Origin: Pontibacillus chungwhensis
GTDB taxonomy: Bacteria > Bacillota > Bacilli > Bacillales > BH030062
NCBI RefSeq assembly: GCF_030166655.1
Contig: NZ_CP126446.1
Location: forward strand, 930,001-994,000
Length of the DNA: 64,000 bases
Direction: 5' to 3'
The notes beneath the pieces were generated by a model. That model had not been told where the DNA came from. It saw nothing but the letters and a program-made list of their open reading frames with translations, and searched no databases. Positions 22,531-59,117 of this stretch are shown here, piece by piece (the first letter of the stretch is position 1; the number at the start of each line of letters is the position of its first letter). Both the position numbers and the translations under genes were made by a program.

Positions 22531-22767
22531 GGTATAAGCTAAGCTGAGATATTTTGTTGTGAAGGGGCCGTTACGTTTGATGAGTGGTTGGGCTTGCTCG
22601 GGGACAACTCGCTTTCCTGCGGGGAGCTGGGAAGCCTCCTCAGACGGCAAGCCGTCTTCCGGGGTCTCCCCTAGGCTCCTCACCCCGTGGGAGTCTCGCA
22701 GTCCCCGAGCAAGCCCTGGCATTATGAGGTGAACGGCCCGACTGGATTCAATTAGCAAGCTTATACC
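22531..22767. repeat. Long-hairpin repeat element, copy 1
   Basis: Nested complementary arms: GGTATAAGCT (22531-22540) with 22758-22767, GGGCCGTT (22565-22572) with 22732-22739, and GGGCTTGCTCGGGGAC (22590-22605) with 22701-22716. Conserved interior ACTCGCTTTCCTGCGGGG ... GGGAGTCTCGCA. The inner arms span 127 bp. It lies between convergent yitW and the moaD-like gene. Confidence 0.9.
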
Positions 22768-22796
22768 TCCCAGGTGGTAGGTAGCCGTCCAACTAT

Positions 22797-22838
22797 CAAA
22801 AAAAGCTCTCCCTCTAATTAAGAGGGAGAGCTTTTCTT
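22797..22838 (-). terminator. Terminator of the MoaD-like gene
   Basis: AAAAGCTCTCCCTCT and its complement (22821-22835) form a 15-bp stem, with a T run on the minus strand. Confidence 0.9.
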
Positions 22839-22841
22839 ACA

Positions 22842-23069
22842 TTACGATTGTGGGGGAATAAAGGCAACGGTATCGCCGTCGCTTAGTTCCGTATCCATAT
22901 CTTTGTATTCATCATTCACAGTAACTTGAGCATGATCTAAATCAAGCACGTTATAGTTCTCTTTTAATGTGGATTTAACATGAGCAACCGTTTGGCCACC
23001 TGCTTCCATTTCTACACTTTCACGACCTGCTGCTTCTTGGAATTGAGCTAGTAGTAATACTTTAACCAC
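22842..23069 (-). CDS. MoaD/ThiS-like ubiquitin-fold protein lacking the terminal Gly-Gly
   Basis: A 75-residue beta-grasp protein: MVKVLLLAQFQEAAGRE, then QVTVNDEYKDMDTELSDGDT and AFIPPQS at the end. This is the layout of molybdopterin-synthase small subunits (MoaD). Normal MoaD and ThiS end in Gly-Gly, the residue pair that is adenylated and thiocarboxylated. Here the reading frame stops right after PPQS and no other frame supplies Gly-Gly. No moa or thi genes are nearby. The function may therefore be non-canonical. Confidence 0.78.
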   Translation of the reverse strand: MVKVLLLAQFQEAAGRESVEMEAGGQTVAHVKSTLKENYNVLDLDHAQVTVNDEYKDMDTELSDGDTVAFIPPQS

Positions 23070-23297
23070 GTTTAAGTCCTCCTTGAAAGGGAGATGAATT
23101 CTCCACTAATTTTTTAGGAACTGCTTTGATTGTGTATACTCTCATCACTTTTAAGTGAAAGTATGGCTTACAACGATATGTACCACTTTATCCCATTCTA
23201 TAAACGTGCAAGAGCAAGAAACGCAGTCTGTAATTTGAAATGATCTTCACTAAAAGTACGGGAAGGTCTTAATTTTTTTCGCTCAGATATGGCAACG

Positions 23298-23473
23298 TTT
23301 TTGTTTAACCCTAACATAGTAGAGGTGGTCCTTTGAAAATGCGAGACTCCCGCGGAAAGACGGGCTTCAGAGATCCCGCAGGGAGTGAAACGAATGAGGA
23401 AGCTCTGGAGTTCGTCCGCAGGAAAGCGAGTGTTTTCAAAGGACCACCTTCCTCTCACTAAAGCAAACAAAAA
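23298..23473. repeat. Long-hairpin repeat element, copy 2
   Basis: Perfect 17-bp arms AGGTGGTCCTTTGAAAA (23323-23339) and their complement at 23433-23449, again spanning 127 bp. Outer TTTTTGTTT (23298-23306) pairs with 23465-23473. The interior has the family ends TGCGAGACTCC and GGAAAGCGAGTG, in reverse orientation relative to copy 1. Confidence 0.9.
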
Positions 23474-23507
23474 GGTTATACCTTTTATAAGCAAAACCCC
23501 AAAATTA

Positions 23508-23545
23508 AAAACGGTGAAACCAAGAATCTTGATTTCACCGTTCCA
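23508..23545 (-). terminator. Terminator of the lmo0937-type gene
   Basis: AACGGTGAAA pairs with TTTCACCGTT; a T-rich tail follows on the minus strand. Confidence 0.8.
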
Positions 23546-23555
23546 TATATGTTCG

Positions 23556-23699
23556 TTAAGGTTTTCGGCCTTTGATTAATCTGTAAACTAATAAGACCAG
23601 GGCGACAACTAACAGAATATGAATAATACCGCCAGCGATTTTAAAGATGACGCCGAATAACCAGAATAGTAATAAGATAAGTAATATGGTCCAAAGCAT
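23556..23699 (-). CDS. lmo0937-family membrane peptide
   Basis: A 47-residue protein, almost entirely hydrophobic: MLWTILLILLLFWLFGVIFK, then a GG break and a second helix ending YRLIKGRKP. This matches the short lmo0937/DUF5670 membrane family, function unknown. GGAGGGATGACAC ribosome site before the ATG. Single gene with its own terminator. Confidence 0.8.
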   Translation of the reverse strand: MLWTILLILLLFWLFGVIFKIAGGIIHILLVVALVLLVYRLIKGRKP

Positions 23700-23795
23700 G
23701 TGTCATCCCTCCTTTTGTTTGTAATTTGCCCCGAAATCCTTTATTTCAAACACATCCTGTTTACTTCAGTGACACCTCTTAGCTGATCCCTATAC

Positions 23796-23880
23796 AAAAA
23801 AAGACACCATCTTGAAATTTACTTTCAAGATGGTGTCTCTTTTAGGGGCCTATCAAAAACCGTTAGGGGGGTAACGGGTA
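23796..23880 (-). ncRNA. Candidate Fur-regulated C-rich small RNA (FsrA-like)
   Basis: Reading the minus strand away from the Fur box: CCGTTA-CCCCCC-TAACGG forms a hairpin presenting a C6 loop. A single-stranded TTTTTGATAGGCCCCTAAAA follows with a second C-run. Then a 15-bp terminator stem (GACACCATCTTGAAA, 23803-23817, with 23823-23837) is followed by seven T. There is no open frame. About 80 nt, C-rich loops and Fur control are the features known for B. subtilis FsrA. A convincing -10/-35 pair was not found, so the start is uncertain. Confidence 0.62.
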
Positions 23881-23881
23881 A

Positions 23882-23896
23882 TGATAATCATTATCA
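23882..23896. promoter_or_regulatory. Fur box (perfect 7-1-7)
   Basis: TGATAATCATTATCA is identical to the Bacillus 7-1-7 Fur consensus on all 15 positions. It lies 370 bp from any annotated start on the plus strand and directly before the C-rich hairpin on the minus strand. Confidence 0.9.
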
Positions 23897-24004
23897 ATGA
23901 GAATTGTTTTCAGTATATCGTTAAATGAGTAGACCGTCAACTCTTACTTTGATTTTGTGTTAAGAATAGGGAATGAAGATCATCTCTTAACAGAGACATA
24001 AAAA

Positions 24005-24062
24005 AGCAGCTACGGTAAGGGGGGAACTTTGAAGGTTGCCCACCCAACACGTAACTGCTTGT
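24005..24062 (-). terminator. Terminator of uppP
   Basis: On the minus strand AAGCAGTTACG pairs with CGTAGCTGCTT around a long loop, then TTTTTT. It starts a few bases after the uppP stop. Confidence 0.75.
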
Positions 24063-24069
24063 TCGTTTC

Positions 24070-24891
24070 TTATAAGAATAAAATCGCGAGCGCTCCGACA
24101 ATAAAGCAATAAAATGCGAAATATTTCAGGTTATTGTTCTTCATCACATTAATAAACCACTTCAGAGCGAAGTAAGAAGCCAGGATCGAACCTAAGAAAG
24201 CCAGAACATAAGGGATATAAAGGTCAGAAGGAGTGTTCATAATAGCTTCCCCCTTTAAGATCACTGTTCCAAGACTGACAGGTATATAAAGTAAAAAGGA
24301 AAAGCGAAGGGCTGTTGTTTGCTTCAACCCAAGAAGCATGGCTGCGACTACCGTTGCACCGGATCGGCTGATCCCTGGGATTAGGGCAACAGATTGGGCT
24401 AGTCCAATAATGAGCGCGTCTTTAAACGTCATATCGCCGTCGCCGCGGCTTCCTTTAAGATTGCGGATCACCCAAAGCGCAATTCCGGTGACGATGAGCG
24501 TGATTCCAACAGTGCTCGCTTGTTCACCGAAAGTGCTTTCAATTGCATCTCCGTATAAAACGCCAATAACGCCCGCTGGGATGGTTCCAATCAATAAATA
24601 AATAATAAAGCGAAAATCTCGAATGGTTTCTTCGTCTCGTTTCTTTTGAAACAAGAAACCAATTCCGCTTGCAATCAAACGTGCCAGGTCATTTCGATAC
24701 ACGATAAAGACAGCAAGTAAAGACCCGAAATTAACAAGAACTTCAAACGTTAACCCTTTTTCACCAATGATATTAAATAAATCTTTCACCATAATCAGGT
24801 GTCCGCTTGAAGAAATAGGGATGGGTTCCGTGAATCCTTGGAATACTCCTAAAAATAAATATTGAATAAGCGTCCATAATTGATCGAGCAT
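24070..24891 (-). CDS. uppP: Undecaprenyl-diphosphatase (UppP/BacA)
   Basis: Integral membrane phosphatase recycling undecaprenyl pyrophosphate for wall synthesis, and giving bacitracin tolerance. Eight or so hydrophobic helices. The family motifs are visible: GFTEPIPISSSGHLIM near residues 18-35 and the PGISRSGATV motif at about 165-175. I prefer the ATG at 24891 (273 residues), 9 bp after GGGAGG; the ATG at 24897 is closer. Monocistronic. Confidence 0.93.
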   Translation of the reverse strand: MLDQLWTLIQYLFLGVFQGFTEPIPISSSGHLIMVKDLFNIIGEKGLTFEVLVNFGSLLAVFIVYRNDLARLIASGIGFLFQKKRDEETIRDFRFIIYLLIGTIPAGVIGVLYGDAIESTFGEQASTVGITLIVTGIALWVIRNLKGSRGDGDMTFKDALIIGLAQSVALIPGISRSGATVVAAMLLGLKQTTALRFSFLLYIPVSLGTVILKGEAIMNTPSDLYIPYVLAFLGSILASYFALKWFINVMKNNNLKYFAFYCFIVGALAILFL

Positions 24892-24989
24892 GTTCATAAT
24901 CCTCCCTAAAGGAAATACATAAATCTATTCTCGTCCTTCACACTTTTTATGTGGGTGAATATCCTACTTGTAAAGAGGAGGTGGCCCGG

Positions 24990-25364
24990 GTGAAGAAGCG
25001 AAGTAAGAAGAATCCATCCACGAATTATCACCATATGTATTCATTATGCAATCAACATATGAATCAATATGTCCTGGCGGAATTGGTGGATGGCCAGAAT
25101 ATTGATGGAATTGTCACGGGTGTAGATGGCGATTATGCCTATTTAGCTGTTCCATTAACAGGCAATGAACAGCAGGAAAGAGATGGTTCACCACAACCTA
25201 TGACAGATCGAGACCAGCGACAATATGGTTATGCCTCGCCTTATGGGGGCGGTTACGGGACTGGCGCACCATATGGATATGGATACACGCCGCCTCCGAG
25301 ATTTAGTCGACTGATTCTTCCTCTTGCAGGTCTTGTTGCGATTAGTTCGCTGCCGTGGTATTAG
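24990..25364 (+). CDS. Hypothetical protein with Gly/Tyr/Pro-rich segment
   Basis: A 124-residue protein, not recognised. A basic start (VKKRSKKNPSTNYHHMYSLC) is followed by a compact beta-like region (LVDGQNIDGIVTGVDGDYAY) resembling a small Sm/SH3-like barrel. Next is a low-complexity stretch of Tyr, Gly and Pro (about residues 85-110), and a hydrophobic end LILPLAGLVAISSLPWY. The GTG at 24990 follows AGAGGAGGTG at good spacing. The composition recalls spore-coat or surface proteins, but nothing proves it. Confidence 0.6.
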   Translation: MKKRSKKNPSTNYHHMYSLCNQHMNQYVLAELVDGQNIDGIVTGVDGDYAYLAVPLTGNEQQERDGSPQPMTDRDQRQYGYASPYGGGYGTGAPYGYGYTPPPRFSRLILPLAGLVAISSLPWY

Positions 25365-25426
25365 ATGTATAAAACCTCACCTCTGTGCCAAACTATCCAT
25401 ATCACTCGTGTAAAGGAGTTAAGCAC

Positions 25427-25606
25427 ATGGGACAAAGACATCAATTTAAACACGGTGACAAAGCACCGAATAACGGAATATATGTAGAAATTGGAGAAAC
25501 CGGTAGCATGGTGAAAGAACCTAAGCAGGTTCATTTAAACGCTGGTGACAAATTCCCTTCAAATTCGAACCAGGACCGAGTTTGGGCTCCTAAACGTAAA
25601 CCGTAA
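25427..25606 (+). CDS. yjzC: YjzC family protein
   Basis: A 59-residue protein beginning MGQRHQFKHGDKAPNNGIY, with VEIGETGSMVKEPKQVHLNAGDKFP internally. It matches B. subtilis YjzC, function unknown. AAAGGAGTT ribosome site. It faces yjzD across a shared terminator and opens the conserved yjzC-yjbQ block. Confidence 0.88.
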   Translation: MGQRHQFKHGDKAPNNGIYVEIGETGSMVKEPKQVHLNAGDKFPSNSNQDRVWAPKRKP

Positions 25607-25616
25607 ATTAAACGTG

Positions 25617-25648
25617 AAAAATCCCCCTTCCTTATCTGGGAAGGAGGA
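25617..25648. terminator. Terminator between yjzC and yjzD
   Basis: AATCCCCCTTCC pairs with GGAAGGAGGATT; T and A runs on opposite sides suit convergent genes. Confidence 0.88.
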
Positions 25649-25654
25649 TTTTTT

Positions 25655-25831
25655 TTATTCCTTATCTTCGGCTAATGCACCTTCACCTAAAAGGACAACG
25701 GCAACGGTGAATCCAATTGTAAGGACAATGGCTTGAGTCATGTTAAAAGCTAGTCCATCCATACTGTTAACAACGTATACTGTCATACAGCTTAATAGGA
25801 ATGACCAAATAATAGACCAAATTAAACGCAT
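25655..25831 (-). CDS. yjzD: YjzD family (DUF2929) membrane protein
   Basis: A 58-residue protein with two hydrophobic helices: MRLIWSIIWSFLLSCMTVYV, then FNMTQAIVLTIGFTVAVVLL. The RLIW.IIWSFLL start is characteristic of YjzD/DUF2929, function unknown. The ATG at 25831 is set by GAGGTG upstream. Position next to yjzC supports the call. Confidence 0.85.
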   Translation of the reverse strand: MRLIWSIIWSFLLSCMTVYVVNSMDGLAFNMTQAIVLTIGFTVAVVLLGEGALAEDKE

Positions 25832-26006
25832 GTTCTTCACCTCAACTTTGACATTCTGATTTTAGTTTATCAAACGTTTCCAATAAAATAAATATAAAAC
25901 GCAATCTTCCTGAAAGAACTTGTAAAATAAGGCATCTAACTATACAAAATTCAATCCAATACATACATTATAGTGGATATGACCCTGAAATAAAGGATGA
26001 GAACAC

Positions 26007-26750
26007 ATGCAAAATGCAATTACGCGTTCTTTCCAATTAGACCGAGAAAACTGTTTACTGCACATTCCGGAACAACCAAATGGATATTTAATACTGTATT
26101 TAGGGGATGCGGGACATTACGTGGAGGAAGATCGTTCTTTTTGGGAAGAACACAGGGGAAGATCGACCCTGCTGCAAGCGTTAGTCGATCAAGGATACAC
26201 TTTATATACGAGCGAACTTTATGGCAATCACTGGGGAAGTGATGCTGCTATCGATTTATTAAACCGCGTTTATCATCATGTGGTAAGGCAAGAAATTGTA
26301 AACCCTTATATCCACGTGGTAGCAGAAGGAATGGGAGCTTTAGCCGCATTGCGTTGGCATGAGCAACAAGAAATCCCGGTCCGCTCCTTCGTCCTTGTGA
26401 CGCCTTGTTTAAATATAAAAGCCATGTACGACGAAGAACGGAAAAACCAGCTCTATTTTAAACGGTTAACAAAGGAAATGGCTAAAGCTTATTCGTGCAC
26501 AGAACTTGAGGTGGATCAGTTTATGACAGAGCGGATTCCGGAGGTTCAAGCTCCTGTCCTCCTTTTTCACGATATGGCAAACCCTCATTACACCGTTCAT
26601 GAACATTCCAGAAGACTTGAGGAGAAACAGGAAGAGGTTTCAGCACCTTTTGAATTAAAGTTGGCCATCCAACCGTTCTTCCCCCGAATTAACCATACAC
26701 TCATTAAATTTATGAAACAATACGAGAAGAGCATCTCAAACCCATATTAA
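26007..26750 (+). CDS. yjaU: YjaU-like alpha/beta-hydrolase
   Basis: A 247-residue alpha/beta-hydrolase-like protein. HVVAEGMGALAALRW occupies the nucleophile-elbow position but reads AEGMGA, lacking the Ser of GxSxG, so catalysis is doubtful. DMANPHYTVHEHS and RINHT are at the usual acid and His places. Position between yjzD and yjaV identifies it with B. subtilis yjaU. AAAGGATGAG ribosome site. Likely co-transcribed with yjaV. Confidence 0.72.
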   Translation: MQNAITRSFQLDRENCLLHIPEQPNGYLILYLGDAGHYVEEDRSFWEEHRGRSTLLQALVDQGYTLYTSELYGNHWGSDAAIDLLNRVYHHVVRQEIVNPYIHVVAEGMGALAALRWHEQQEIPVRSFVLVTPCLNIKAMYDEERKNQLYFKRLTKEMAKAYSCTELEVDQFMTERIPEVQAPVLLFHDMANPHYTVHEHSRRLEEKQEEVSAPFELKLAIQPFFPRINHTLIKFMKQYEKSISNPY

Positions 26751-26802
26751 AGTGATATGAACCATTCCCCTTCTCATAGAATGTAGAAGGGGAGGGAACG
26801 AC

Positions 26803-27390
26803 ATGGCATATCTACTATCGGGATGTTTTCATTGGATCGGGTATCACTTAACAGAAGCTCTGCTAAATGAAGGTGAAACAGTGATTGGAGTGGATTCTGA
26901 CTGGAATGAGCAAAAAGAGTGGCTCTCCCTCTATGTAGGGAGAAATGCCTCATTCCATCTTTTAGACTCTGTCGGTGATGTGAAAGACTCTATGCTGGAT
27001 GAAGATCTGGTTGTTGTTCACATAGGCGGTGAAAAGGAGATAAAAGATCCCAAGATTCCGATTACATTTGAATGGATCATTGAGGTGGGTAAAAAGAACC
27101 ATGAGGAGCACCCGGTTCTTTATGCCAAGGAAGTATACGGCCCATGGATGCCTCATCCTGTAAAACCAACCTCTGCTGAGGCTCTTTACGTAGATGATTT
27201 CATAAGAGGTATTCTAGAGGTTATCGAACAGGGAGAAAAGAAAGACTTTGTTGAAATCCTCCCCTCTTCACAAGGGGGATCTGGTGGTCAAGGGGCCAGC
27301 TGGTTTGTAGAGGAAACGATGAATCAAAAAGAAGGATGGCAGCGTGTTTTAACGCATCAGGAGCAATTCCCGAATTACTACAAGTTGTAG
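26803..27390 (+). CDS. yjaV: YjaV-like protein (reduced nucleotide-binding fold)
   Basis: A 195-residue protein. The start AYLLSGCFHWIGYHLTEALL imitates the TGxxGxxG start of extended SDR/epimerase folds, followed by an acidic ribose-binding-like VIGVDSD. KEVYGPWM and a DDFIRGILEVIE helix also recall epimerases, but the catalytic YxxxK is not evident and the protein is short. Probably a non-enzymatic relative. Synteny equals yjaV, upstream of med. Confidence 0.72.
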   Translation: MAYLLSGCFHWIGYHLTEALLNEGETVIGVDSDWNEQKEWLSLYVGRNASFHLLDSVGDVKDSMLDEDLVVVHIGGEKEIKDPKIPITFEWIIEVGKKNHEEHPVLYAKEVYGPWMPHPVKPTSAEALYVDDFIRGILEVIEQGEKKDFVEILPSSQGGSGGQGASWFVEETMNQKEGWQRVLTHQEQFPNYYKL

Positions 27391-27498
27391 CATCCTCATG
27401 AACTTTAGAGGGCAATCATTTACGGATCTAGGTATTAACGGTACAATGTGACTAGATATGTACTTTAATGGGATAAAGACGTAAATGAGGTGCTCGAA

Positions 27499-28476
27499 GT
27501 GAAGATGCGATCGTTGATCTTTATGGGTATCCTTCTCCTTGCACTTACGGGATGTACCGAGACATTTGGGCAAGGGAAGGTCCAAAAGGTTGGAATGTTA
27601 GTAGAAAGTACAGTGCACGATCAGGCCTGGGGGCAAAAAGGGTATGAAGGGCTTTTGCAAATAAAAGAAGAGCTCAGTGTAGATGTGTACTTTAAAGAAG
27701 ACGTGAAAACTCAATTAGAGACTCAGCAAGCGATTGAAGCGTTTGCTGATAAAGGGGTCAATTTAATATTTGGACACGGAAGCCGGTACGGGCAATACTT
27801 TCAGGAGTTACAAAAGGAGTACCCGGATATTCGTTTTGTGTACTTTAACGGAAGTATTAAAGGCGAGAATATAACAAGCCTTAATTTTAACGCTCATGCC
27901 ATGGGGTTCTTTGGCGGGATGCTTTCAGCGGAAATGACCGAGTCTAATCAAGTAGGGGTCATCGCTGCTTTTGAGTGGCAGCCAGAGATTGAAGGGTTCT
28001 ACGAAGGCGTCAATTATGTGAACCCTGAGGCTGAAGTTAACATTCAATACGTGAATAGCTGGGACAACAAGGATCGTGCTCTTCAATTTTATAACCAAAT
28101 GAGGCAGTCAGGTGTGGATGTGTTCTACCCGGCCGGGGATGGCTTTAGCGTACCTGTGATTGAAGAGGCCAAGTCAACCAATACGAATGCGATCGGATAT
28201 GTATCAGATCAATTAAGTATTGGTGCTTCTACAGTATTAACGAGTACCGTACAGCACGTGGACAAGCTCTATGTCTTAGCGGCTAAGAAATACAATATAG
28301 GTGAGTTGCCTGAGGGAACATTGAACTTTGATTTCCAGGAAGGCGTGATTACTCTTGGGGAGTTCGGTGAAAAGGTACCGGAGAATGTCAGGAATCAGAT
28401 CACATCTGCTGTTGAGGAATATAAAGAATCAGGGCAATTGCCAAATGAAAGAGAAACAACTGAAAATGAATCGTAA
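27499..28476 (+). CDS. med: Med-like BMP-family lipoprotein, positive regulator of comK
   Basis: Med is a membrane-attached BMP/substrate-binding-like protein that promotes comK expression in B. subtilis. The GTG start at 27499 follows GAGGTG and gives MKMRSLIFMGILLLALTGC, with lipobox LTGC at residue 19. The body has the BMP family features: VGMLVESTVHDQAWGQKGYEG, NLIFGHGSRYGQY, and a ligand-pocket Asp region PAGDGFSVP. comZ, which follows med in B. subtilis, is not present; a reversed small gene occupies that place. Confidence 0.87.
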   Translation: MKMRSLIFMGILLLALTGCTETFGQGKVQKVGMLVESTVHDQAWGQKGYEGLLQIKEELSVDVYFKEDVKTQLETQQAIEAFADKGVNLIFGHGSRYGQYFQELQKEYPDIRFVYFNGSIKGENITSLNFNAHAMGFFGGMLSAEMTESNQVGVIAAFEWQPEIEGFYEGVNYVNPEAEVNIQYVNSWDNKDRALQFYNQMRQSGVDVFYPAGDGFSVPVIEEAKSTNTNAIGYVSDQLSIGASTVLTSTVQHVDKLYVLAAKKYNIGELPEGTLNFDFQEGVITLGEFGEKVPENVRNQITSAVEEYKESGQLPNERETTENES

Positions 28477-28536
28477 AAAAGCTATCCTACATAAGGAATG
28501 GGGAAGACCTCTCCTTATGTAAATAGCTTTTTTTGT
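28476..28536. terminator. Terminator between med and the following reversed gene
   Basis: AAAGCTAT plus TACATAAGGA pair with TCCTTATGTA plus ATAGCTTT, then a T run; A-rich on the opposite side, so it can act both ways. Confidence 0.85.
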
Positions 28537-34821: not shown

Positions 34822-35075
34822 AATAAAAAAGGTCCATTCGTCTACGTCTGAAACGTAGGGACGAATGAACCGTGGTGCCACCCTAATTATCCTAAAGGGG
34901 ATTCCTTTAAGATCACTTAACCTGTTATCGCCAGGAGTACGGTGTTTCATACTATTCGTTCTGAAACACAGCCAGAAAGTCCACTTCCAATTCACCGTGC
35001 TGCCTGTTCTCACCATTGCAGGCTCTCTGTATGCAGAGGGGAAATTGTACTCTCTTTCTCATCGCTTCATATACA
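34822..35075 (-). promoter_or_regulatory. T-box leader of trpS
   Basis: Contains the T-box sequence AGGGTGGCACCACGG (34870-34884, minus strand). A terminator follows immediately: stem over 34831-34871 (GGTTCATTCGTC ... GACGAATGGACC), then TTTTTT. An AGTA-type segment GAGAGTACAA lies near 35047 at the base of stem I. A TGG lies in the candidate specifier loop (AATTGGAAGTGG, near 34985), agreeing with tryptophan. Antitermination occurs on binding uncharged tRNA. Confidence 0.93.
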
Positions 35076-48880: not shown

Positions 48881-49054
48881 GGTCCGTTGCCAGAAAAGAG
48901 AAGGGGCTTGCTCGGGGACAACTCGCTTTCCTGCGGGGAGCTGGGAAGCCTCCTCGTTCGCTATCGCTCTCTGTGGGGTCTCCCCTAGGCTCTTAACCCC
49001 GCGGGAGTCTCGCAGTCCCCGATCAAGCCCTGGAGTTTAGTAGTTGAACGGACC
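48881..49054. repeat. Long-hairpin repeat element, copy 3
   Basis: GGTCCGTT (48881-48888) pairs with 49047-49054. GGGCTTGCTCGGGGAC (48904-48919) pairs with 49015-49030 with one mismatch; the span is again 127 bp. Same orientation and interior as copy 1. Confidence 0.9.
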
Positions 49055-49126: not shown

Positions 49127-49160
49127 AAGGGTCTGGGAACTGCGAGACTCCCGTGGGCTG
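49127..49160. repeat. Long-hairpin repeat element, truncated copy 4
   Basis: Only one end remains: AAGGGTCTGGGAAC followed by TGCGAGACTCCCGTGGG; no complementary arm is found downstream. Lies before coiA. Confidence 0.7.
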
Positions 49161-49287
49161 AAGAGACAGTCTATTTCCTGGGTGGAGGATCTAAAGCTGC
49201 CTTACTTGCATGATAATGGTTAACGGCTTCTTTTGAAAAAGAAGGAATATCAGAAGGGGTGGAGAATAGGTATGGTGGAGGTGATGT

Positions 49288-50457
49288 ATGTTAAAAGCAA
49301 TCACAAAAGATGGCATCGCTCATGTATTAGCACGATACACAAAGGAGGAGATTTATGAATTAAGAAGACAACCCTTTTATTGTCCAGCCTGTTCTGAAGA
49401 AGTCACCCTGAAAGCTGGTTCTAAAGTTATTCCTCATTACGCACACAAGCCACATGGAACGTGCCGTATGCAAGAGGTTGGGGAAGGGGCTTATCATGAA
49501 GCAGGAAAATGGCAGTTATACGAATGGCTGCGGCGGCAAGGGTACCATGTAGAGTTAGAAGCTTATTTGCCTTCGATCCAACAGCGGCCTGATTTGTTGC
49601 TAACCATTCGGGAAAAGCGTGTCGCTATTGAGTACCAGTGTTGTCGTATTTCCCCGGAAATGATCAAATTGCGCACGGAAGGTTATAGATCAGCAGGGAT
49701 TATCCCTTTATGGATTTTAGGTGGAAATCGCCTGAAGCGCGCTCATACCAATATGCTTTCTCTTACTTCGTTTGAAAAACTCTTCTTGCAGCAATTTAAA
49801 GCCACTCCTCATCCCATGCTCTTGTTTTATTGTTCTTCCACCCATCAGTTCGCCCGTTTTTATCGCCCTTTGTTACTCACCAATCGTAAGTCGCTTGGGA
49901 AACTTTCGTTCTTTCCGTCCACCTCATGTAGTTTAACTTCTCTTTTATCTCCTCATCAGACTGTCTCACCTTCTTATGTCTTTCAATCCTGGTTAAAGGA
50001 AAAAAGGCGGTTTAGAAAGCAAGTACCAAGAAAAATGAACAAAAGCTCAGATTTTTCTTGGAGACAATGGCTTTATCTCCGACGCTTGCATCCAAGTACT
50101 CTTTCAGCTCTAATCCATTTGCCCGTCCCGTTCTCCTACGTATATGAACTTCCTCCCTATCAATGGCAGGCCAAAATCCTGATGGACGAAATTCACCCCC
50201 AGCCTACGGGGGAACCTTTCTCATTACCTGTCTATCCCTTCAGCAAAACGACGTGTACCGATCTACCATTGCTACCTGATACTCAAAAACCAATCGAGCT
50301 TTACACAAACCTTCTATGTGAGATTGGAATTCTGAAGAAATTAGAAACCGGTAAGTATGTGAAGCTCATAGATCTCCCTATGCCCACAACTGTTCACGAA
50401 GCGATCGAACAGGACGAATGGGTATTAAAAGAACTTCTGAATCGTTCCCTGCTATAA
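49288..50457 (+). CDS. coiA: CoiA competence protein
   Basis: Nuclease-like protein needed for processing incoming DNA in transformation. 389 residues. The N-terminus has FYCPACSEEVTLKAGSKVIPHYAH (a likely zinc or His-Cys element), followed by a PD-(D/E)xK-like core: QQRPDLLLTI and RVAIEYQCC. The C-terminal half is poorly conserved. GGAGGTGATGT ribosome site. Upstream of pepF, as in B. subtilis. Confidence 0.92.
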   Translation: MLKAITKDGIAHVLARYTKEEIYELRRQPFYCPACSEEVTLKAGSKVIPHYAHKPHGTCRMQEVGEGAYHEAGKWQLYEWLRRQGYHVELEAYLPSIQQRPDLLLTIREKRVAIEYQCCRISPEMIKLRTEGYRSAGIIPLWILGGNRLKRAHTNMLSLTSFEKLFLQQFKATPHPMLLFYCSSTHQFARFYRPLLLTNRKSLGKLSFFPSTSCSLTSLLSPHQTVSPSYVFQSWLKEKRRFRKQVPRKMNKSSDFSWRQWLYLRRLHPSTLSALIHLPVPFSYVYELPPYQWQAKILMDEIHPQPTGEPFSLPVYPFSKTTCTDLPLLPDTQKPIELYTNLLCEIGILKKLETGKYVKLIDLPMPTTVHEAIEQDEWVLKELLNRSLL

Positions 50458-52587: not shown

Positions 52588-52760
52588 GGTCCGTTACGAT
52601 AAGAGTGCTTGGGCTGTCTGGAGGACCACTCGCTTTCCTGCGGGGAGCTGGGGAGCCTCCTCAATCGCTACGCGCTTTCCGGGGTCTCCCCTAGGCTCCT
52701 TACCCCGCGGGAGTCTCGCAGTCCTCCAGACAGCCCCTCCCTTAGAAGGGTTAACGGACT
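52588..52760. repeat. Long-hairpin repeat element, copy 5
   Basis: GGTCCGTT (52588-52595) pairs with 52753-52760 (one G-T wobble). GGGCTGTCTGGAGGAC (52611-52626) pairs perfectly with 52721-52736, span 126 bp. Compared with copies 1 and 3 this inner arm differs at four positions, all compensated on the other side. Confidence 0.92.
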
Positions 52761-52825
52761 TGTTCATCGGCTTAATGCGCTCCCATTTCTCATACATGGT
52801 ACGTACCGTTTCTCCTCAATGGGCA

Positions 52826-52978
52826 AAGGTGGTCCTGGAAATTGCGAGACTCCTGAGGGAGAGAGAGCTTAATATATAAAAGCGGAAGTTCGACTAAGAC
52901 CGTCACGTCCTGTGACAACGTCGAACGACCCCACGTCGTGTGGGGCCTAGGAAAGCGAGTGATTTCCAGGACCGCCTT
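52826..52978. repeat. Long-hairpin repeat element, copy 6 (atypical centre)
   Basis: AAGGTGGTCCTGGAAAT (52826-52842) pairs with 52962-52978 with one wobble. Ends TGCGAGACTCC and GGAAAGCGAGTG are kept, but the span is 153 bp and the centre is replaced by AT-rich sequence plus a CCCCAC..GTGGGG hairpin. It lies 66 bp from copy 5 in opposite orientation. Confidence 0.85.
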
Positions 52979-53014
52979 ACTCCCAATTAGCGGTAACGGA
53001 AACGTTCTCTTACC

Positions 53015-53188: not shown

Positions 53189-53295
53189 GGGTGCACCTCC
53201 AGACTTGTATTATTCTAGTCTATGTAAAGAATGTCCCATACTTTCCAACCAATAGGTGATAGATGTGACGTTTTTGTGAAGGTGATGAAAAAATA

Positions 53296-53344
53296 TTGAT
53301 ATCGACAGGGATTCTTGTTATATTTATCTGTGAAAAGGATCACA
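53296..53344 (+). promoter_or_regulatory. RoxS promoter with Rex-like operator
   Basis: TTGATA (53296-53301), 17-bp spacer, TATATT (53319-53324). TGTGAAAAGGATCACA (53329-53344) lies over the start point and fits the Rex form TGTGAA-N4-TTCACA with one mismatch; Fnr or another Crp-type protein is an alternative reader. Confidence 0.78.
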
Positions 53345-53452
53345 TACCAAACAATAACCCCTTTGTTTGATCGTGAGACTTTCTCCCATCCCCCTTTGTC
53401 TTAAAGATAAAGACATAGATTAAAGCCAGGCTGACCCCGCCTGGCTTTTTAT
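53331..53452 (+). ncRNA. roxS: RoxS (RsaE) trans-acting small RNA
   Basis: About 120 nt without an open frame. It has the two family segments that I recognise from RsaE/RoxS: AACCCCTTTGTTTGA, whose TTTGTTTG folds back on CAAACA to show a CCCC loop, and TTTCTCCCATCCCCCTTTGT, the unpaired C-rich region that pairs with ribosome sites. It ends in a terminator (AAAGCCAGGC with GCCTGGCTTT, 53422-53448). Position between pepF and yjbH is the location known for RsaE in Staphylococcus. Role: down-regulation of central-metabolism mRNAs under respiratory or redox change. Confidence 0.9.
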
Positions 53453-53456
53453 TTTT
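53422..53456 (+). terminator. Terminator of RoxS
   Basis: AAAGCCAGGC, TGACCCC loop, GCCTGGCTTT, then TTATTTTT. Confidence 0.9.
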
Positions 53457-53530
53457 ACTTAAATGGAAATAAATGATTGGAATGGATATTTATATAGTTA
53501 AATATTTTAATAAAATATAAAGGTACAAAA

Positions 53531-53566
53531 AAGGCCCCATCTTTTCGATTGAAAGATGGGGCCTTC
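53531..53566 (-). terminator. Terminator of yjbH
   Basis: AAGGCCCCATCTTT stem, with six T on the minus strand. Confidence 0.88.
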
Positions 53567-53570
53567 GTGT

Positions 53571-54464
53571 TTAGGTCACATAGCGCCAAAACGTTCCGTA
53601 TTTTACAGGGTGCTTTTCGACTTTTTGTTTCAGTTGGAGTTTCTTCATCTCGCATTCGGTTTTCGATTCGCTCCAGTCGAAAACCACGGAAATTTCCTGG
53701 GTACCGACGAAGCGGTAATATTCTAAGAACTCCTCAAGTGATGGTTTTATGGCTGCTTGAGGTTCTTTCTGCATCATTTCTTGAAGGACGTTTACATAGA
53801 CGTTATACGGGTAAAGCCCAGTAATCTTAATGCCTTCTTCTTCCTCTTGCTGGTTGAAAAGGACAATGGCCGGAATTTCTTCGACCTCCATCTCACGTGT
53901 GAGCTTAAGGTCACATTGGAGTGCGCGTTTAGCAGAGTCAGAATGAAGGTCTTCTTTGAATTCCTCAACATCAAGGTTACTCTCTTTTGCACAGCGGAGT
54001 AAAACTTCTTCGTTAGAAATGTTTTGTTTATTTAGGAATAAGTTTTCTTGTATTTTGCGTAAGAAACGCATGCCTGCTTTCTTTCCTTGAAGTTCAGCAG
54101 CTTTAATGGATAAAGCGGCCATCCAAGGGGAGGAGACAGGGTTTTCGAACCATAAATCACCGTCGCAGCTCATCCCAGTTCTAGACGCGACCTTTTCCCA
54201 TACTTTTGCCAGGTCTTCAGGTTTTTGAAAGGCTTCTGCATTCAGGGAGGTTAGTTTTCCACTGATAATAGGTCGAATGGTAAAGTATCTCCCGTATTCA
54301 AGCGTAAGTTTTTTCAGAAATGGCTCTAAAGACCAGCATTGAGGGCATAAAGGATCTATAAATACATAGATCTCAACAGGCTTCTTTAAAAGGTCGACAA
54401 AACCATACTGGGATTGTGATGTTTGGTTCATGTTGTTGTGTTCCCCAGTTGCCTTAAAACTCAC
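53571..54464 (-). CDS. yjbH: ClpXP adaptor YjbH/SpxH
   Basis: DsbA/FrnE-like adaptor that presents Spx to ClpXP. 297 residues with [20 protein letters not shown] (thioredoxin-type CPQC near residue 40) and a helical middle typical of this family. The GTG at 54464 is preferred over the internal ATG at 54431: it is 7 bp after AAAGGAG and overlaps the yjbI stop as GTGA, which means translational coupling. Its target gene spx is also in this window. Confidence 0.92.
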
Positions 54465-54865
54465 GTCGATTCTCCTTTCCCGTGTTCTGGAGTATTCATC
54501 ATATGATGAGCTGTATGCGTTAATCGTTCAAAGATTGCACTTCTGTAAGGTTCTTCGATCTCAGCTTCTTCTAGCGCACCATTCATACAATACAACCACG
54601 CATCTTTTCGTGTTGGTGTAATTTCAAAAGGCAGGTGGCGGGCTCTTAGCATAGGGTGCCCGTGTTCTTCTGTATAGTATGCAGGTCCACCGAGAAACTG
54701 GGTTAGAAATTGTTTTTGTTTACGAATCGTTTCTGTTAAATCATTTGGAAATATGGGCTGTAAGTTCGGATGCTCGGCAACCCTGCTGTAAAAGGATTCT
54801 ACAAGTTGGTTAATAGCAGCAGGACCACCTATGGCCTCATAAAGCGTACCTGGGTAATCATTCAT
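54461..54865 (-). CDS. yjbI: Truncated hemoglobin YjbI
   Basis: Group II truncated globin, 134 residues. [20 protein letters not shown] is the A/B-helix start, and [20 protein letters not shown] carries the distal and proximal region with a haem-binding His, followed by the Trp of DAWLYCM. Oxygen or peroxide-related role; operon partner of yjbH, as in other Bacillales. Confidence 0.93.
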
Positions 54866-54917
54866 AAGAATGCCTCATTTACTTGTATTTTAGTGGACGT
54901 TCCCCACTTTTATAGAG

Positions 54918-54960
54918 AAGGCGATTTGCCCTTTAGGAAGGGAGGAATCGCCTCTTTGTT
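54918..54960. terminator. Terminator between yjbI and yjbK regions
   Basis: GGCGATTTGCCCTTT pairs with AAGGGAGGAATCGCC, followed by TCTTTGTTT on plus; A/T-rich on both sides. Confidence 0.6.
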
Positions 54961-55006
54961 TGATTTTATTGTAGCAACGGGTTGTTTAAACAATCAACAA
55001 ATCTGT

Positions 55007-55579
55007 TTATAGTAGAGATTGGAAAAAACGTTGAATTTTGTTAGGAGTGTCTCGTGATGGGATGTTGTGCTGTTGTAAAAGCTGCTCAAATATTTCTTTA
55101 CCGTGATTCGCTTCCTTTGCTTCAAGCTCTAATTCATAATCGGTGACGTTGTTGTAATGGCTGCGGTCGAGCACAACAAGTGTATCCTTGTACTCTTTTT
55201 CCATGCGTTCTGTTGTAAGAGCACCCTTAAAGCTTAAGTTTGAAAATGGAATGCCGAGTGCTGCTAGCTGATTCTCGATATTTGGAGCGGTAACAGGTGC
55301 TTCATTCATCCACTGATACGCTTCTTCTTCAGTCAGGGTATCATGCGTTTCGAGGAGGCCGTCAACATGTGGTTCTTTTAAAGTGGCCGTCCATGTATCA
55401 CCTTTTTTGCGAATGCGAAGGGCTGCAAGCTTATCTCTCAGATCAAATTGATCCGTTTCAAAGTAGTAATTGGTTTGAGTGAAGCGATCTTCAGTTGAAA
55501 AGGCTAAAGCACTTACGAGAGCTTCATATTCCTCTTCTTTAAGCAAATTTTTAAATTCGATTTCGATTTCTTGTGACAT
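55007..55579 (-). CDS. yjbK: CYTH domain protein YjbK
   Basis: CYTH/triphosphate-tunnel phosphohydrolase, 190 residues. The ExExK signature is in EIEIEFKNLL at residues 4-13; RIRKKGDTWTATLK and the alternating charged strands (YELELEAKEA) line the tunnel. It hydrolyses triphosphates or inorganic polyphosphate; substrate not determinable. GAGGAATTTGT ribosome site. Divergent from yjbM. Confidence 0.92.
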   Translation of the reverse strand: MSQEIEIEFKNLLKEEEYEALVSALAFSTEDRFTQTNYYFETDQFDLRDKLAALRIRKKGDTWTATLKEPHVDGLLETHDTLTEEEAYQWMNEAPVTAPNIENQLAALGIPFSNLSFKGALTTERMEKEYKDTLVVLDRSHYNNVTDYELELEAKEANHGKEIFEQLLQQHNIPSRDTPNKIQRFFQSLL

Positions 55580-55742
55580 ACAAATTCCTCCAATATTGCG
55601 GCTTATTTGCCATTTCTATTATTGATGAATGGGATAAAGATTGCAAATATTAATCATGAAATCATTTATGATACAATAGAGCACAGGCCAATATCGTGTC
55701 CTATTTACATAAACGATGATTGGATAAAAGGTGGTGCAAGAA

Positions 55743-56381
55743 TTGAATTGGGAAACGTTTTTAGCCCCGTACAGACAAGCAGTTGACGAGCTAAAGGTAA
55801 AATTAAAGGGAATGAGGGCACAGTATGAGTATGGTGCGATGCATTCTCCGATTGAGTTCGTCACAGGTAGGGTAAAACCTATTACTAGCATCCTTGATAA
55901 AACGCGAAAAAAGGATATTCCATATGCGAATCTCGAAGACGAAATTCAGGATATAGCCGGTATTCGTGTCGTTTGCCAGTTTGTAGATGATATTTACACG
56001 GTTGTGAATATGATTAGAAAACGAAATGACTTCGATATTTTAGAGGAAAAAGACTATATTACGAAGAAAAAAGAGAGTGGTTACAGATCGTATCATATTA
56101 TTATTGAGTACCCTGTTGAAACCATCGAAGGGGAAAAGAAGCTCCTTGCAGAGATTCAGATCCGTACATTGGCTATGAATTTTTGGGCTACAAATGAGCA
56201 TTCGTTAAACTATAAATATAGTGGTCAAATTCCAGCAGAAGTAAAGAGTCGTCTAAAAAACGCTTCTGAAGCCGCATTTCGATTAGATGAAGAAATGTCA
56301 AAAATAAAAAGCGAGATCCAGGAAGCGCAGGCGATCTTCCGCCAGAAGCACGATCAAAATGATAACGATGATGATTCCTAA
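55743..56381 (+). CDS. yjbM: Small alarmone (p)ppGpp synthetase YjbM (SasB/RelQ)
   Basis: Transfers pyrophosphate from ATP to GDP/GTP without a hydrolase domain. 212 residues from the TTG at 55743 (7 bp after AAGGTGG), which gives MNWETFLAPYRQAVDELKVK, close to the known family start; the GTG codons at 55731 and 55734 overlap the ribosome site. SGYRSYHIII and EIQIRTLAMNFWA are catalytic segments. Followed by nadF. Confidence 0.94.
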   Translation: MNWETFLAPYRQAVDELKVKLKGMRAQYEYGAMHSPIEFVTGRVKPITSILDKTRKKDIPYANLEDEIQDIAGIRVVCQFVDDIYTVVNMIRKRNDFDILEEKDYITKKKESGYRSYHIIIEYPVETIEGEKKLLAEIQIRTLAMNFWATNEHSLNYKYSGQIPAEVKSRLKNASEAAFRLDEEMSKIKSEIQEAQAIFRQKHDQNDNDDDS

Positions 56382-56402
56382 TTTTAAAGGGGGAGAACTC
56401 AA

Positions 56403-57203
56403 GTGAAATTTGCGATTTTGTCAAAAGGGGACAGTGCCTCTGACGAATTTCTGTCCAAAATGAAAAATTACTTAACAGAATTTAACCTTGAATTGGATCA
56501 TGATGAGCCAGATCTTGTCATTTCGATTGGAGGAGACGGTACATTGCTCGAGGCTTTCCATACATATATCCATCGCCTTGAGGAAACAGCATTTATTGGG
56601 GTACACACCGGTCACCTTGGATTCTATGCGGACTGGATGCCGAAGGAACTAGAGAAGTTGATCATCGAAATTGCCAGAACTCCGTTCCAGGTTGTTGAGT
56701 ATCCGCTACTTGAGATCATCATCCGACCAAAAGGCGATCAGCCAGAAGATAAGTACCTCGCATTAAACGAATGTTCTGTGAAAACAGCAGAAGGTTCAGT
56801 AGTGCTTGATGTGGAGATTAAGGGAGAGCATTTTGAGACCTTCCGAGGAGACGGCCTTTGCATCTCGACTCCATCTGGAAGTACAGCGTATAATAAAGCG
56901 CTTGGGGGAGCGATTATTCATCCTTCGCTTGAAGCGATCCAGATTGCTGAAATGGCCTCCATTAATAACCGCGTCTTCCGTACGATTGGCTCTCCGCTAA
57001 TCTTACCGAAGCATCATACGGCAATGCTGAAGCCTCAAAATGATAAGAGCTTTATGATTACCCTTGACCATATTACACGGAAGTATTCGGATGTGAAATC
57101 CATTCAGTGCCGTGTAGCTAAAGAGAAAGTCCGGTTTGCTCGCTTCCGTCCCTTCCCGTTCTGGAAACGCGTCCATGACTCCTTTATAGCAGACGAACGA
57201 TAA
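56403..57203 (+). CDS. nadF: NAD kinase
   Basis: Phosphorylates NAD to NADP. 266 residues. [11 protein letters not shown] holds the GGDGT motif with the catalytic Asp, and [15 protein letters not shown] the NAD-binding loop. GTG start after AAAGGGGGAG. Operon yjbM-nadF-yjbO as in B. subtilis, with gaps of 12-21 bp. Confidence 0.96.
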
Positions 57204-57215
57204 GGGGGCTCGGCA

Positions 57216-58091
57216 ATGAAGTATATAGTTGACCAGCAGCACGACGGAATGCTCGTACGCGATTATTTATATCACGTACGAGCATTTTCTCGTCGTATGA
57301 TTAAAGTCATTAAATATGACGAAGGCATTCTTTTAAATAACTCCGCTGTTACAGTCCGGGCGAGAGTGAGGGCAGGGGATGAGCTGTTCATTCAATTCCC
57401 TCCTGAAGAGCGAGGCCCACACCTGGCTCCTGTTCATAAACCGATCTCGATCTTGTATGAAGATGAAGATGTTGTAGTCCTAAATAAACCAGCTGCTCTT
57501 GCCACAATCCCATCTGTTCATCATTTGAATGATACGTTAGCAAACAGACTGATGGCGTATTACGATGACCATCAGATTCCATTTACATTCCATGTTGTAA
57601 CACGTCTCGACCGTGATACCTCGGGCATTGTGCTTGTAGCGAAGAATAGGTTTGTGCATTCTCTCTTAGCTAAAGTACAAGAAGAAGGAGCGGTAAGAAG
57701 GACTTATCATGCAATTGTCGAAGGCCACCTAGACGAGGGCAAGGGGACAATTGATGCTTCCATTGACAGAGCGCCAGGCTCCATTATTGAAAGGTGTGTA
57801 ACGGATACCGGGAAACGGGCCATTACCCATTATGAAGTAGTAAAAAAGCAGCGTGACACAACATTGGTAAAAGTCCGCTTAGAGACAGGACGAACCCACC
57901 AAATCCGTGTCCATTTTGATTACATTGGTCATTCGTTGCGTGGTGATCCGTTATATAATGGCGTGAACGTGGGAATAGAGCGACATGCATTGCATTGTAG
58001 CTCTATTCAGTTTCCATTACCCTCGACCGGTGAAGAGGTGTGTATAGAGGCCCCTTTACCACCAGATATGGAATCCTTAATAAAGGTTTGA
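57216..58091 (+). CDS. yjbO: RluA-family pseudouridine synthase YjbO
   Basis: Modifies uridines in rRNA or tRNA. 291 residues: an S4-like N-terminus (RRMIKVIKYDEGILLNNSAV) and the RluA catalytic motif RLDRDTSGIVLVAK with catalytic Asp. TGRTHQIRVHF and GDPLYN are further family motifs. Target site not known. Last gene of the yjbM operon. Confidence 0.93.
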   Translation: MKYIVDQQHDGMLVRDYLYHVRAFSRRMIKVIKYDEGILLNNSAVTVRARVRAGDELFIQFPPEERGPHLAPVHKPISILYEDEDVVVLNKPAALATIPSVHHLNDTLANRLMAYYDDHQIPFTFHVVTRLDRDTSGIVLVAKNRFVHSLLAKVQEEGAVRRTYHAIVEGHLDEGKGTIDASIDRAPGSIIERCVTDTGKRAITHYEVVKKQRDTTLVKVRLETGRTHQIRVHFDYIGHSLRGDPLYNGVNVGIERHALHCSSIQFPLPSTGEEVCIEAPLPPDMESLIKV

Positions 58092-58114
58092 GCCTTAGTG
58101 CTCAAACCTTTATT
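58083..58114. terminator. Shared terminator of yjbO and prpE
   Basis: AAAGGTTTGAGC pairs with GCTCAAACCTTT around CTTAGT; convergent genes on both sides. Confidence 0.85.
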
Positions 58115-58865
58115 AATCATCAAAGGAACGGAATTTCTCAGGGACTTCAGGCTGTTTAGAGGGAACGCTTCTAATCTCTTCTTCAGGTAAACGGAAACAC
58201 GTCAAAGCTCCCCCAAACACACAACCGGTATCGATATTCACCGTCTTATGTTTGAACCGAGGTTCTCTGACAGGTGTATGCCCATATACAATCCACTGTC
58301 CCCCTTCATAATCAGCGGCCCAGTCTCGTCTAACGGGCATCCCATTTTCATCAAACTCTCCAGTAACGTCACCATATAAAACAAAAGTACGCACCTTTTT
58401 ATTCTGAAACGATTTCCCAATCATATCCTCACGAATCCCCGCATGAGCAATCACCACATTCGCCTCAGGATCTTCAAGATACAATGGCGACTCCTCATAA
58501 AGCGTAATAAACTGATCTTTAACGATTCTTTGTTCATCCTTCGAAAGAGCTTCATACTCAGCCACAGTCGTTTCCAACCCATGCTTATGCTTCACAGGAT
58601 TCCCCTTAAAAAAGCGGTACAACTTATTGCAGTGATTTCCCGGGACATATTTCGCCATTTTCTCCACTACCACCATCCGATACACAAGCCGAATTACATC
58701 AAGAGAAGCAGGCCCTCTGTCCGTAAGATCCCCGACAAAAACAGGAATCCGACCCTCAGGGTGACGAGGAACCTTGCCCGTGGTGGAATAACCTAGTTTA
58801 GTAAATAATTCAATCAGTTCATCATAACAACCATGCACATCACCTATGCAATCTAGTTTTTTCAT
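58113..58865 (-). CDS. prpE: PrpE-like metallophosphatase / diadenosine tetraphosphatase
   Basis: PPP-family phosphatase, 250 residues. Metal motifs in order: [24 protein letters not shown], then a later His in IAHAGI and [10 protein letters not shown]. subtilis PrpE hydrolyses Ap4A asymmetrically and affects spore germination; the same role is inferred. AGGAGGACC ribosome site. Confidence 0.92.
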
Positions 58866-58945
58866 GTATGGTCCTCCTTGATTTTGCTTTTTTGTAATTG
58901 TTTTTATGAATTTGTGTTTTTGCTTTACCTAACTCATAAGAGGTG

Positions 58946-59117
58946 GGGCGTTCGTAAGAATATGGCAAGGGGTGTCTGGGGAACGGGGAGACTCCTGCAG
59001 GAGAAAGAGGTCGACGAGACCCCGGAGCGAACGAAGTGAGGGAGGAGGCTCGACAGCTCGCCTGCGGAAAGCGAGTCGTTCCCCAGACACCCCTTAGCAC
59101 TCATTAATGCAACGCCC
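58946..59117. repeat. Long-hairpin repeat element, copy 7
   Basis: AAGGGGTGTCTGGGGAAC (58967-58984) pairs perfectly over 18 bp with 59078-59095, span 129 bp. Outer GGGCGTT (58946-58952) pairs with 59111-59117. Arms differ from every other copy yet stay complementary. Located between rodA and prpE, both on minus. Confidence 0.92.

What the first reader, a model, noticed from the sequence alone, without database searches (positions are those of the whole stretch)
22531..59117. Dispersed long-hairpin element with covarying terminal arms
Six complete copies (22531-22767, 23298-23473, 48881-49054, 52588-52760, 52826-52978, 58946-59117) share interior ends ACTCGCTTTCC and GGAGTCTCGCA. Their terminal arms differ between copies: GGGCTTGCTCGGGGAC, AGGTGGTCCTTTGAAAA, GGGCTGTCTGGAGGAC, AAGGTGGTCCTGGAAAT, AAGGGGTGTCTGGGGAAC. 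Within each copy the opposite arm is complementary over 16-18 bp, so changes are compensated. A second, outer arm (GGGCCGTT, GGTCCGTT, GGGCGTT) covaries too. The distance across the arms is 126-129 bp in five copies. Compensation means the fold is either selected (RNA or cruciform) or renewed by a copying mechanism that rewrites one arm from the other. Similar repeats occur in Bacillaceae intergenic DNA, but I know of no explanation for the arm covariation.
Basis: partly seen in the sequence, partly recalled or inferred. Interest (0 to 1): 0.78.

Follow-up and report, generated by a model that had tools for sequence, protein, structure and literature searches.

The report
Mobile DNA hairpins with matched arms
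The repeats are worn copies of a small mobile DNA element of spore-forming bacteria that folds into one or two long hairpins; the hairpin arms differ between copies yet usually match each other, and the evidence points to DNA-level copying and turnover more than to a conserved RNA.

Summary
All six copies are present; five carry both quoted ends (58946-59117 ends GGAGTCTCCCC). The 11-base end occurs 141 times in this genome. In 151 two-ended copies from three congeneric genomes, 146 have at least 14 of 16 arm pairs, with 41 different perfect arms. Covariation survives a phylogeny-aware null at eight arm pairs.

New: the family is a MITE. Better-preserved copies have terminal repeats GGCTNTGTTAAA and 8-bp target duplications (16 of 22; shifted control 2 of 616). 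The same ends border full-length IS1595-family transposase genes in related genomes. One insertion is absent from a sister species, and no arms pre-exist there. The six window copies have lost these ends. Copies often stand as convergent hairpin pairs with unlike arms, and interiors occur inside other arm types.

Arms show no G.U excess (G.U 17, A.C 29), unlike terminators (22:9), so an RNA selected on one strand does not explain them; an inner stem differs (22:2). Orthologous copies mostly decay in place (4 one-sided changes, 1 compensated; small sample), so matching is probably renewed when copies move or are replaced. That step is inferred. RAYT is not supported.

The parts
22531..22767 (+). 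Hairpin copy 1 (arm type A): outermost arm 22531-22540/22758-22767, outer arm from 22564 / to 22739, inner arm 22590-22605/22701-22716, shared ends 22607-22617 and 22690-22700
   Evidence: inner arm 16/16 Watson-Crick
23298..23475 (-). Hairpin copy 2 (arm type BC): inner arm 23323-23339/23433-23449, shared ends 23340-23350 and 23421-23431, outer arm TTTTTGTTT/AAACAAAAA
   Evidence: 16/16
48881..49054 (+). Hairpin copy 3 (type A): outer arm GGTCCGTT/AACGGACC, inner arm 48904-48919/49015-49030, one mismatch
   Evidence: starts shortly after a terminator-like hairpin and T-run behind the upstream gene (sequence)
49141..49288 (-). Truncated partner copy: end motif at 49141-49151 and remnants; the far limit is only the start of the next gene
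52588..52761 (+). Hairpin copy 4 (type A): inner arm 52611-52626/52721-52736; first half of a convergent pair
   Evidence: 16/16
52803..53007 (-). Hairpin copy 5 (type BC, one mismatch): inner arm 52826-52842/52962-52978; second half of the pair; carries an insert
52878..52944 (+). Bacillaceae-1 (RF01690) module inside copy 5
   Evidence: 68 bits against a gathering score of 35
58945..59117 (-). Hairpin copy 6 (type D): outer arm GGGGCGTT/AACGCCC, inner arm 58967-58984/59078-59095; right-hand end motif GGAGTCTCCCC
   Evidence: 16/16

Best explanation
The six repeats are old, end-eroded copies of a MITE (small non-autonomous transposon) whose terminal repeats and 8-bp target duplications match an IS1595-family insertion sequence. 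Between the ends it holds one hairpin (elements of about 185 bp in several other genera) or, in this genus, often two convergent hairpins with unlike arms. The internal loops are conserved across Bacillales; the arms vary but match. Two processes explain the covariation. (1) Seen in the sequences: copies are found with the interior of one type inside the arms of another, both arms staying together, and whole copies are replaced at the same site. (2) Inferred: new matched arms arise at the DNA level; a change in one arm is written into the other by template switching or hairpin repair when the hairpin is copied, or only hairpin-competent copies spread. Settled copies then decay.
For: Terminal repeats GGCTNTGTTAAA..TGTTGATT bound 22 core-containing stretches in held loci; 16 of 22 have an 8-bp direct repeat with at most 1 mismatch, against 2 of 616 at shifted offsets. 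The same ends with perfect 8-bp duplications border IS1595-family genes: Pontibacillus sp. ALD_SL1 plasmid (ATTCGAAA; NF033547 7e-62, PF12762 2e-13) and two copies in G006. This genome has a 359-codon IS1595 frame with the right end and TTATAAAT on both sides, left end eroded in my reading. One G005 composite is flanked by AATTGTTT/ATTTGTTT where G006 has an empty site without arms. Arm and interior types disagree in 18 of 147 classified copies (automatic typing). Of 22 loci with typed copies in both G005 and G006, 9 differ in arm class or order, 3 differ by a missing hairpin, 10 agree (my count; examples). Inner arms: G.U 17, A.C 29 in 175 of 226 copies that reach the score; outer arms 11:11; terminator control 22:9. 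For 111 of 148 copies the nearest non-identical arm differs at one pair: 54 double, 57 single changes. In place: 7 orthologous hairpins, 112 pair columns, 4 single and 1 double change (C.G to G.C, block D 85157).
Against: Rewriting of one arm from the other was not observed; only 7 in-place hairpins could be compared, chosen for similarity, and one of the 5 changes is compensated. Absence of a G.U excess does not exclude selection acting on both strands (cruciform, or both transcripts). The inner stem has G.U 22 to A.C 2 (14 to 2 as distinct events, 16 of 22 at one stem-edge position), which could mean RNA-level tolerance. On the opposite strand the arm counts read G.U 29, A.C 17 (p 0.10). In the wider Bacillales set only 27 of 60 copies reach the strong-pairing score (1 of 60 re-paired). 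G005 has many copies but no PF12762 match. No terminal repeat lies within 450 bp of any window copy. Conserved loops across an order suggest a function that this explanation does not name.
Confidence: 0.6

Rival explanations
1. The hairpin is selected as a structured RNA or as a two-strand DNA/RNA fold: for example a 3'-end element or bidirectional terminator read from both sides, so that pairing must hold on both strands. Arms drift but are compensated by selection.
For: Covariation beyond a phylogenetic null; conserved loops GCTTTCC, GAGCCTCCTC, GGGGTCTC, GGAGTC in many genera while arms differ (the scan pattern itself asked for two of these motifs); terminator-like sites reading toward the element upstream in 42 of 148 copies against 15 reading away, so copies tend to sit behind genes in sense orientation; G.U 22 to A.C 2 in the inner stem; one compensated change in place.
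Against: No G.U excess in inner arms (17 against 29) or outer arms (11 against 11) where terminators of the genus genomes show 22 to 9. A position behind terminators would mean little transcription, but transcription was not measured and a terminator was called upstream of only 42 of 148 copies. Content at orthologous sites is often replaced or partly deleted. No Rfam family covers the hairpin in the window or in 7 relatives' loci.
Confidence: 0.25
2. No special process: a few ancestral arm types spread as matched pairs and were shuffled with interiors by homologous exchange; remaining differences are ordinary decay.
For: Arms fall into classes A, BC and D; arm and interior types disagree in 18 of 147 classified copies; composites at different loci share whole blocks.
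Against: 41 distinct perfect arms in 89 perfect copies, and 54 double against 57 single one-column differences between nearest arms; quite different matched arms in other genera (27 of 60 strongly paired).
Confidence: 0.12
3. REP-like repeats moved by a RAYT (Y1) transposase.
For: Y1 genes exist in 8 of 8 genus genomes, most of them RAYT-like in length. G002 and G003, which lack the exact end motif, do carry about 121 cores each, so presence of Y1 genes there is no argument against.
Against: The three RAYT-like loci read (L155, L156, L159) are flanked by short GTGCCAGGCACCC-type repeats, not these hairpins. Terminal repeats with 8-bp target duplications are not expected of that mechanism (recalled).
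Confidence: 0.03

Closest known systems
IS1595 family insertion sequences and their MITEs
   Same: Family described as usually flanked by 8-bp duplications, related Merlin elements with 5'-GG ends (passages of PMC8101967); the same end sequence as IS1595-family elements in Pontibacillus sp. ALD_SL1 and G006.
   Different: No transposase gene; most of the interior is one or two long hairpins with conserved loops and varying matched arms.
ERIC, Bcr1, RUP and other palindromic intergenic repeats
   Same: Intergenic imperfect palindromes in tens to hundreds of copies (recalled; ERIC, Bcr1, RUP, Bhal-1 and Efa-1 are named in passages of PMC2267715).
   Different: Those are known by a consensus sequence (recalled); here arms have no consensus between types. 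Sequences of Bcr1 and Bhal-1 were not compared.
Quasipalindrome correction by template switching
   Same: Makes imperfect inverted repeats perfect in bacteria, and is proposed to explain compensatory changes in RNA stems (listing and abstract starts; passages of PMC8794818).
   Different: I saw no report of it acting on a mobile-element family; here internal loops stay unsymmetric while arms are perfect.
Bacillaceae-1 RNA (RF01690)
   Same: One window copy and L099 carry it inside the hairpin.
   Different: A 67-base insert module, mostly found elsewhere: 4 of 30 RF01690 loci read lay near this core by a loose test, plus the window copy.

Membership tests
MITE of the IS1595 family | Terminal inverted repeats shared with an autonomous IS1595-family element | tested here: met
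   GGCTCTGTTAAAGTT..TGTTGAT-type ends printed for MITE copies L083, L088, L041 and IS locus L360 and for IS loci L362, L363
MITE of the IS1595 family | 8-bp target site duplication | tested here: met
   16 of 22 TIR-bounded elements; control 2 of 616
MITE of the IS1595 family | Insertion polymorphism with an empty site | tested here: met
   One clean case, block D 165756: G005 filled, G006 empty; a second (36422) has only a 5-bp repeat
MITE of the IS1595 family | Terminal repeats at the six window copies themselves | tested here: not met
   No match to GGCTCTGTTAAA with at most 2 mismatches within 450 bp of any copy. Membership of these copies rests on the shared core and arms and on copies with ends and duplications in the same genome (L083; L088)
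MITE of the IS1595 family | Mobilised in trans by the IS1595 transposase | not testable with these tools
   Needs a transposition assay
REP/RAYT system | Repeat associated with its RAYT gene | tested here: not met
   Three RAYT-like loci read carry another, short repeat
Structured non-coding RNA | Covarying stems | tested here: met
   8 inner-arm pairs at E<=0.05
Structured non-coding RNA | G.U pairs favoured over A.C on the RNA strand | tested here: inconclusive
   Not met in inner arms (17 against 29) and outer arms (11 against 11), while terminators show 22 against 9; but the inner stem shows 22 against 2, mostly at one edge position
Structured non-coding RNA | Match to a described RNA family | tested here: not met
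   No Rfam hit to the hairpin in the window or 7 other loci; only the Bacillaceae-1 insert
bcr1 / Bhal-1 repeats | Sequence identity with those families | not tested
   Only names, sizes and copy numbers were seen

The most novel reading that the evidence does not exclude
An order-wide MITE family whose hairpin arms are rewritten from each other whenever a copy is made (hairpin template switching or repair), so that it shows RNA-like covariation without any RNA function, and whose two-hairpin form keeps unlike arms because two like ones would form one long unstable palindrome.
Probability: 0.3. Interest if true: 0.75.

Novelty: new variant of a known kind. Interest (0 to 1): 0.52.

Why it matters
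Compensated changes in stems are the standard evidence that an RNA fold is functional. Here a transposon family shows strong compensation, with about 60 to 130 cores in each of five congeneric genomes, no one-strand G.U excess in the arms, and mostly one-sided changes once settled. It offers hundreds of natural replicates to test whether DNA copying alone can produce RNA-like covariation. It also ties a common intergenic hairpin of Bacillales, not described in the papers that my searches reached, to the IS1595 family, and shows that the Rfam family Bacillaceae-1 is a dispersed multi-copy module in this genus.

Tried and rejected
RAYT as driver: set aside for the reasons given. ISL3 family (8-bp duplications, recalled): PF01610 has no match in G000; G006 has a frame with stops and G004 a sub-threshold match; replaced by IS1595 after the end matched (29 bases, 93%, E 0.01) beside an annotated IS1595 element. 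IS6: no such end sequence in the passages read. Arms as a pre-existing target hairpin into which a core inserts: rejected by the empty site and by terminal repeats lying outside the arms. Plasmid or phage carriage: no match at E 1e-5 for one 211-bp copy. Looking for the sequence in print by short motifs gave no paper on such a repeat among the rows listed (30 of 290; 20 of 28). Other searches listed no paper that by title or abstract start describes this family; the library lacks most subscription journals. Infernal models and R-scape were not run; the covariation test is my own script with 60 null replicates, and recombination between copies breaks its tree assumption. ORF calls on short loci were too rough for statistics. 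The unlike-pair count (38 of 45) and the arm/interior table use automatic typing with some errors (for example one BC-like arm filed under A), and pairs are not independent because composites are copied as units.
Full report
OBSERVATION. The six copies, their ends and their arms are in the window as described. Four pair perfectly, two have one mismatch. One copy (58946-59117) has a different right end, GGAGTCTCCCC. A seventh, truncated copy starts at 49141. The end motif ACTCGCTTTCC occurs 141 times in the 4.17-Mb genome and the pattern read backwards never. The 100 places that were listed were fetched.

SIZE OF THE COVARIATION. In held DNA of three congeneric genomes (G000 = this one, G005, G006) I found 151 copies with both ends: 89 have 16/16 Watson-Crick inner-arm pairs, 46 have 15, 11 have 14, 5 fewer. 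Copies that had lost one end were not counted. There are 41 distinct perfect arms. For 111 of 148 copies the nearest non-identical arm of the same class differs at one pair, and 54 of those are double and 57 single changes. Re-pairing arms at random within a genome destroys the match (73 of 73 to 13 of 73 in this genome). A null that re-places the same substitutions on the tree leaves eight inner-arm pairs, one outer-arm pair, one inner-stem pair and one tip pair at E<=0.05; ten other significant column pairs are not base pairs of the hairpin and probably reflect linked modules (123 of 151 copies, 60 replicates).

ANATOMY. From outside in: terminal repeat GGCTCTGTTAAAGTT..; short end hairpins; an inverted GACTCGAAGCTGAGA box; outer arm; loop; inner arm; conserved loop GCTTTCC/GGAGTC; inner stem; GAGCCTCCTC..tip..GGGGTCTC. 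In this genus two hairpins often stand head to head; of 45 such pairs found, 38 join a BC-type and an A- or D-type hairpin (automatic typing). Inserts occur, among them the Rfam Bacillaceae-1 module. Arms differ completely between genera; 27 of 60 scored copies reach the strong-pairing score against 1 of 60 re-paired, so more than half of that set pairs weakly or shortly by this measure. Core counts in the genus are G000 62, G002 121, G003 121, G005 131, G006 106, G007 9, G001 1, G004 0. By arms (L210, L249) and transposase (L360) the window's genus is probably Pontibacillus; this is inference.

WHAT MOVES IT. In held loci 22 core-containing stretches are bounded by GGCTNTGTTAAA-type terminal repeats; 16 of 22 are flanked by an 8-bp direct repeat with at most one mismatch, against 2 of 616 shifted comparisons. 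In this genome L083 has both, L088 has both by the looser scan, and L096 has the ends but 2 mismatches in the repeat. A plasmid search with that end gave a weak match (29 bases, 93%, E 0.01) starting 81 bases before an annotated IS1595-family transposase of Pontibacillus sp. ALD_SL1; its two ends match and are flanked by ATTCGAAA on both sides. The protein matches NF033547 at 7e-62 and PF12762 at 2e-13. PF12762 is over cut-off in 2 of 8 genus genomes: G006 twice, with the same ends and perfect 8-bp repeats, and this genome once at 1179339, with a 359-codon open frame, the right end and TTATAAAT on both sides, its left end eroded in my reading. G005, rich in copies, has none. IS1595 elements are described as usually flanked by 8-bp duplications (passages of PMC8101967). 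No terminal repeat lies within 450 bp of any window copy; they are decayed copies of the family. One insertion (block D, 165756) is present in G005 and absent in G006, whose site has no arm or hairpin.

TURNOVER. Aligned blocks of G005 and G006 are 84-95% identical. Of 22 loci with typed copies in both, 9 differ in arm class or order, 3 lack one hairpin on one side, 10 agree (my count from the table). At one site the pair is in opposite order between the same flanks and its arms differ. The same site behind one gene holds different hairpins in G000, G002, G003, G005 and G006. Arm and interior types disagree in 18 of 147 classified copies, for example 10 BC-arm copies with D interiors and 3 A-arm copies with C interiors. 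If exchange points lie in the loops shared on both sides, arms stay matched.

RNA OR DNA. If one strand's RNA were selected, G.U pairs should exceed A.C on that strand. Inner arms of 175 of 226 copies have G.U 17, A.C 29 (p 0.10); outer arms 11 and 11; 114 terminator-like hairpins of the genus genomes scored in the same way have 22 and 9 (p 0.03). This argues against one-strand RNA selection of the arms but not against two-strand selection. The inner stem goes the other way, 22 to 2, with 16 of 22 at one stem-edge position, so RNA-level pairing there is open. Upstream terminators reading toward the element were called for 42 of 148 copies against 15 reading away; downstream 11 and 9: copies tend to lie behind terminators in sense orientation. 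Transcription was not measured.

IN PLACE OR AT COPYING. Seven hairpins kept at the same site in G005 and G006 (chosen for at most 6 arm differences and shared 9-mers) give 112 inner-arm pair columns with 4 one-sided changes and 1 compensated change (sequences). The sample is small, but settled copies seem mostly to lose pairing while the population is nearly perfect. The simplest reading is that pairing is renewed, or demanded, when copies are made. Template switching that perfects imperfect inverted repeats is known (abstract starts; passages of PMC8794818), but here it is an inference.

VERDICT. A new, unusually structured MITE family of the IS1595 kind. Firm: transposon nature of the family, covariation, mixed arm/interior copies, turnover. 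Inferred: the rewriting step, trans-mobilisation by IS1595, and avoidance of like-armed pairs because of palindrome instability. Not explained: why the internal loops are so conserved.

Noticed in passing
52878-52944 (+); genus genomes: Rfam Bacillaceae-1 (RF01690) matches 23 to 143 times per genome in 7 of 8 genus genomes (only part of the candidates were scored), sometimes in tandem and in other repeat contexts: a dispersed module rather than a single sRNA gene.
   Followed up: partly
53330-53451 (+): RsaE/RoxS-like sRNA, 75.5 bits against a gathering score of 79; by eye the same motif stands between the same genes in G005, G006, G007, G001 and G004.
   Followed up: no
34854-35071 (-): T-box leader, 118 bits.
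   Followed up: no
G000:C1 whole chromosome: Among the 100 listed copies (of 141), one lies between 1.65 and 2.65 Mb and none before 0.30 Mb; the family may avoid the terminus region.
   Followed up: no
L012, L021, L069, several G005/G006 loci: A second recurrent insert (GTGCAAGCGTGGTGCCTAGGACCGTACGG...) replaces part of the hairpin interior in several copies.
   Followed up: no
L155, L156, L159: RAYT-like genes flanked by short GTGCCAGGCACCC-type repeats: a probable separate REP/RAYT system.
   Followed up: no
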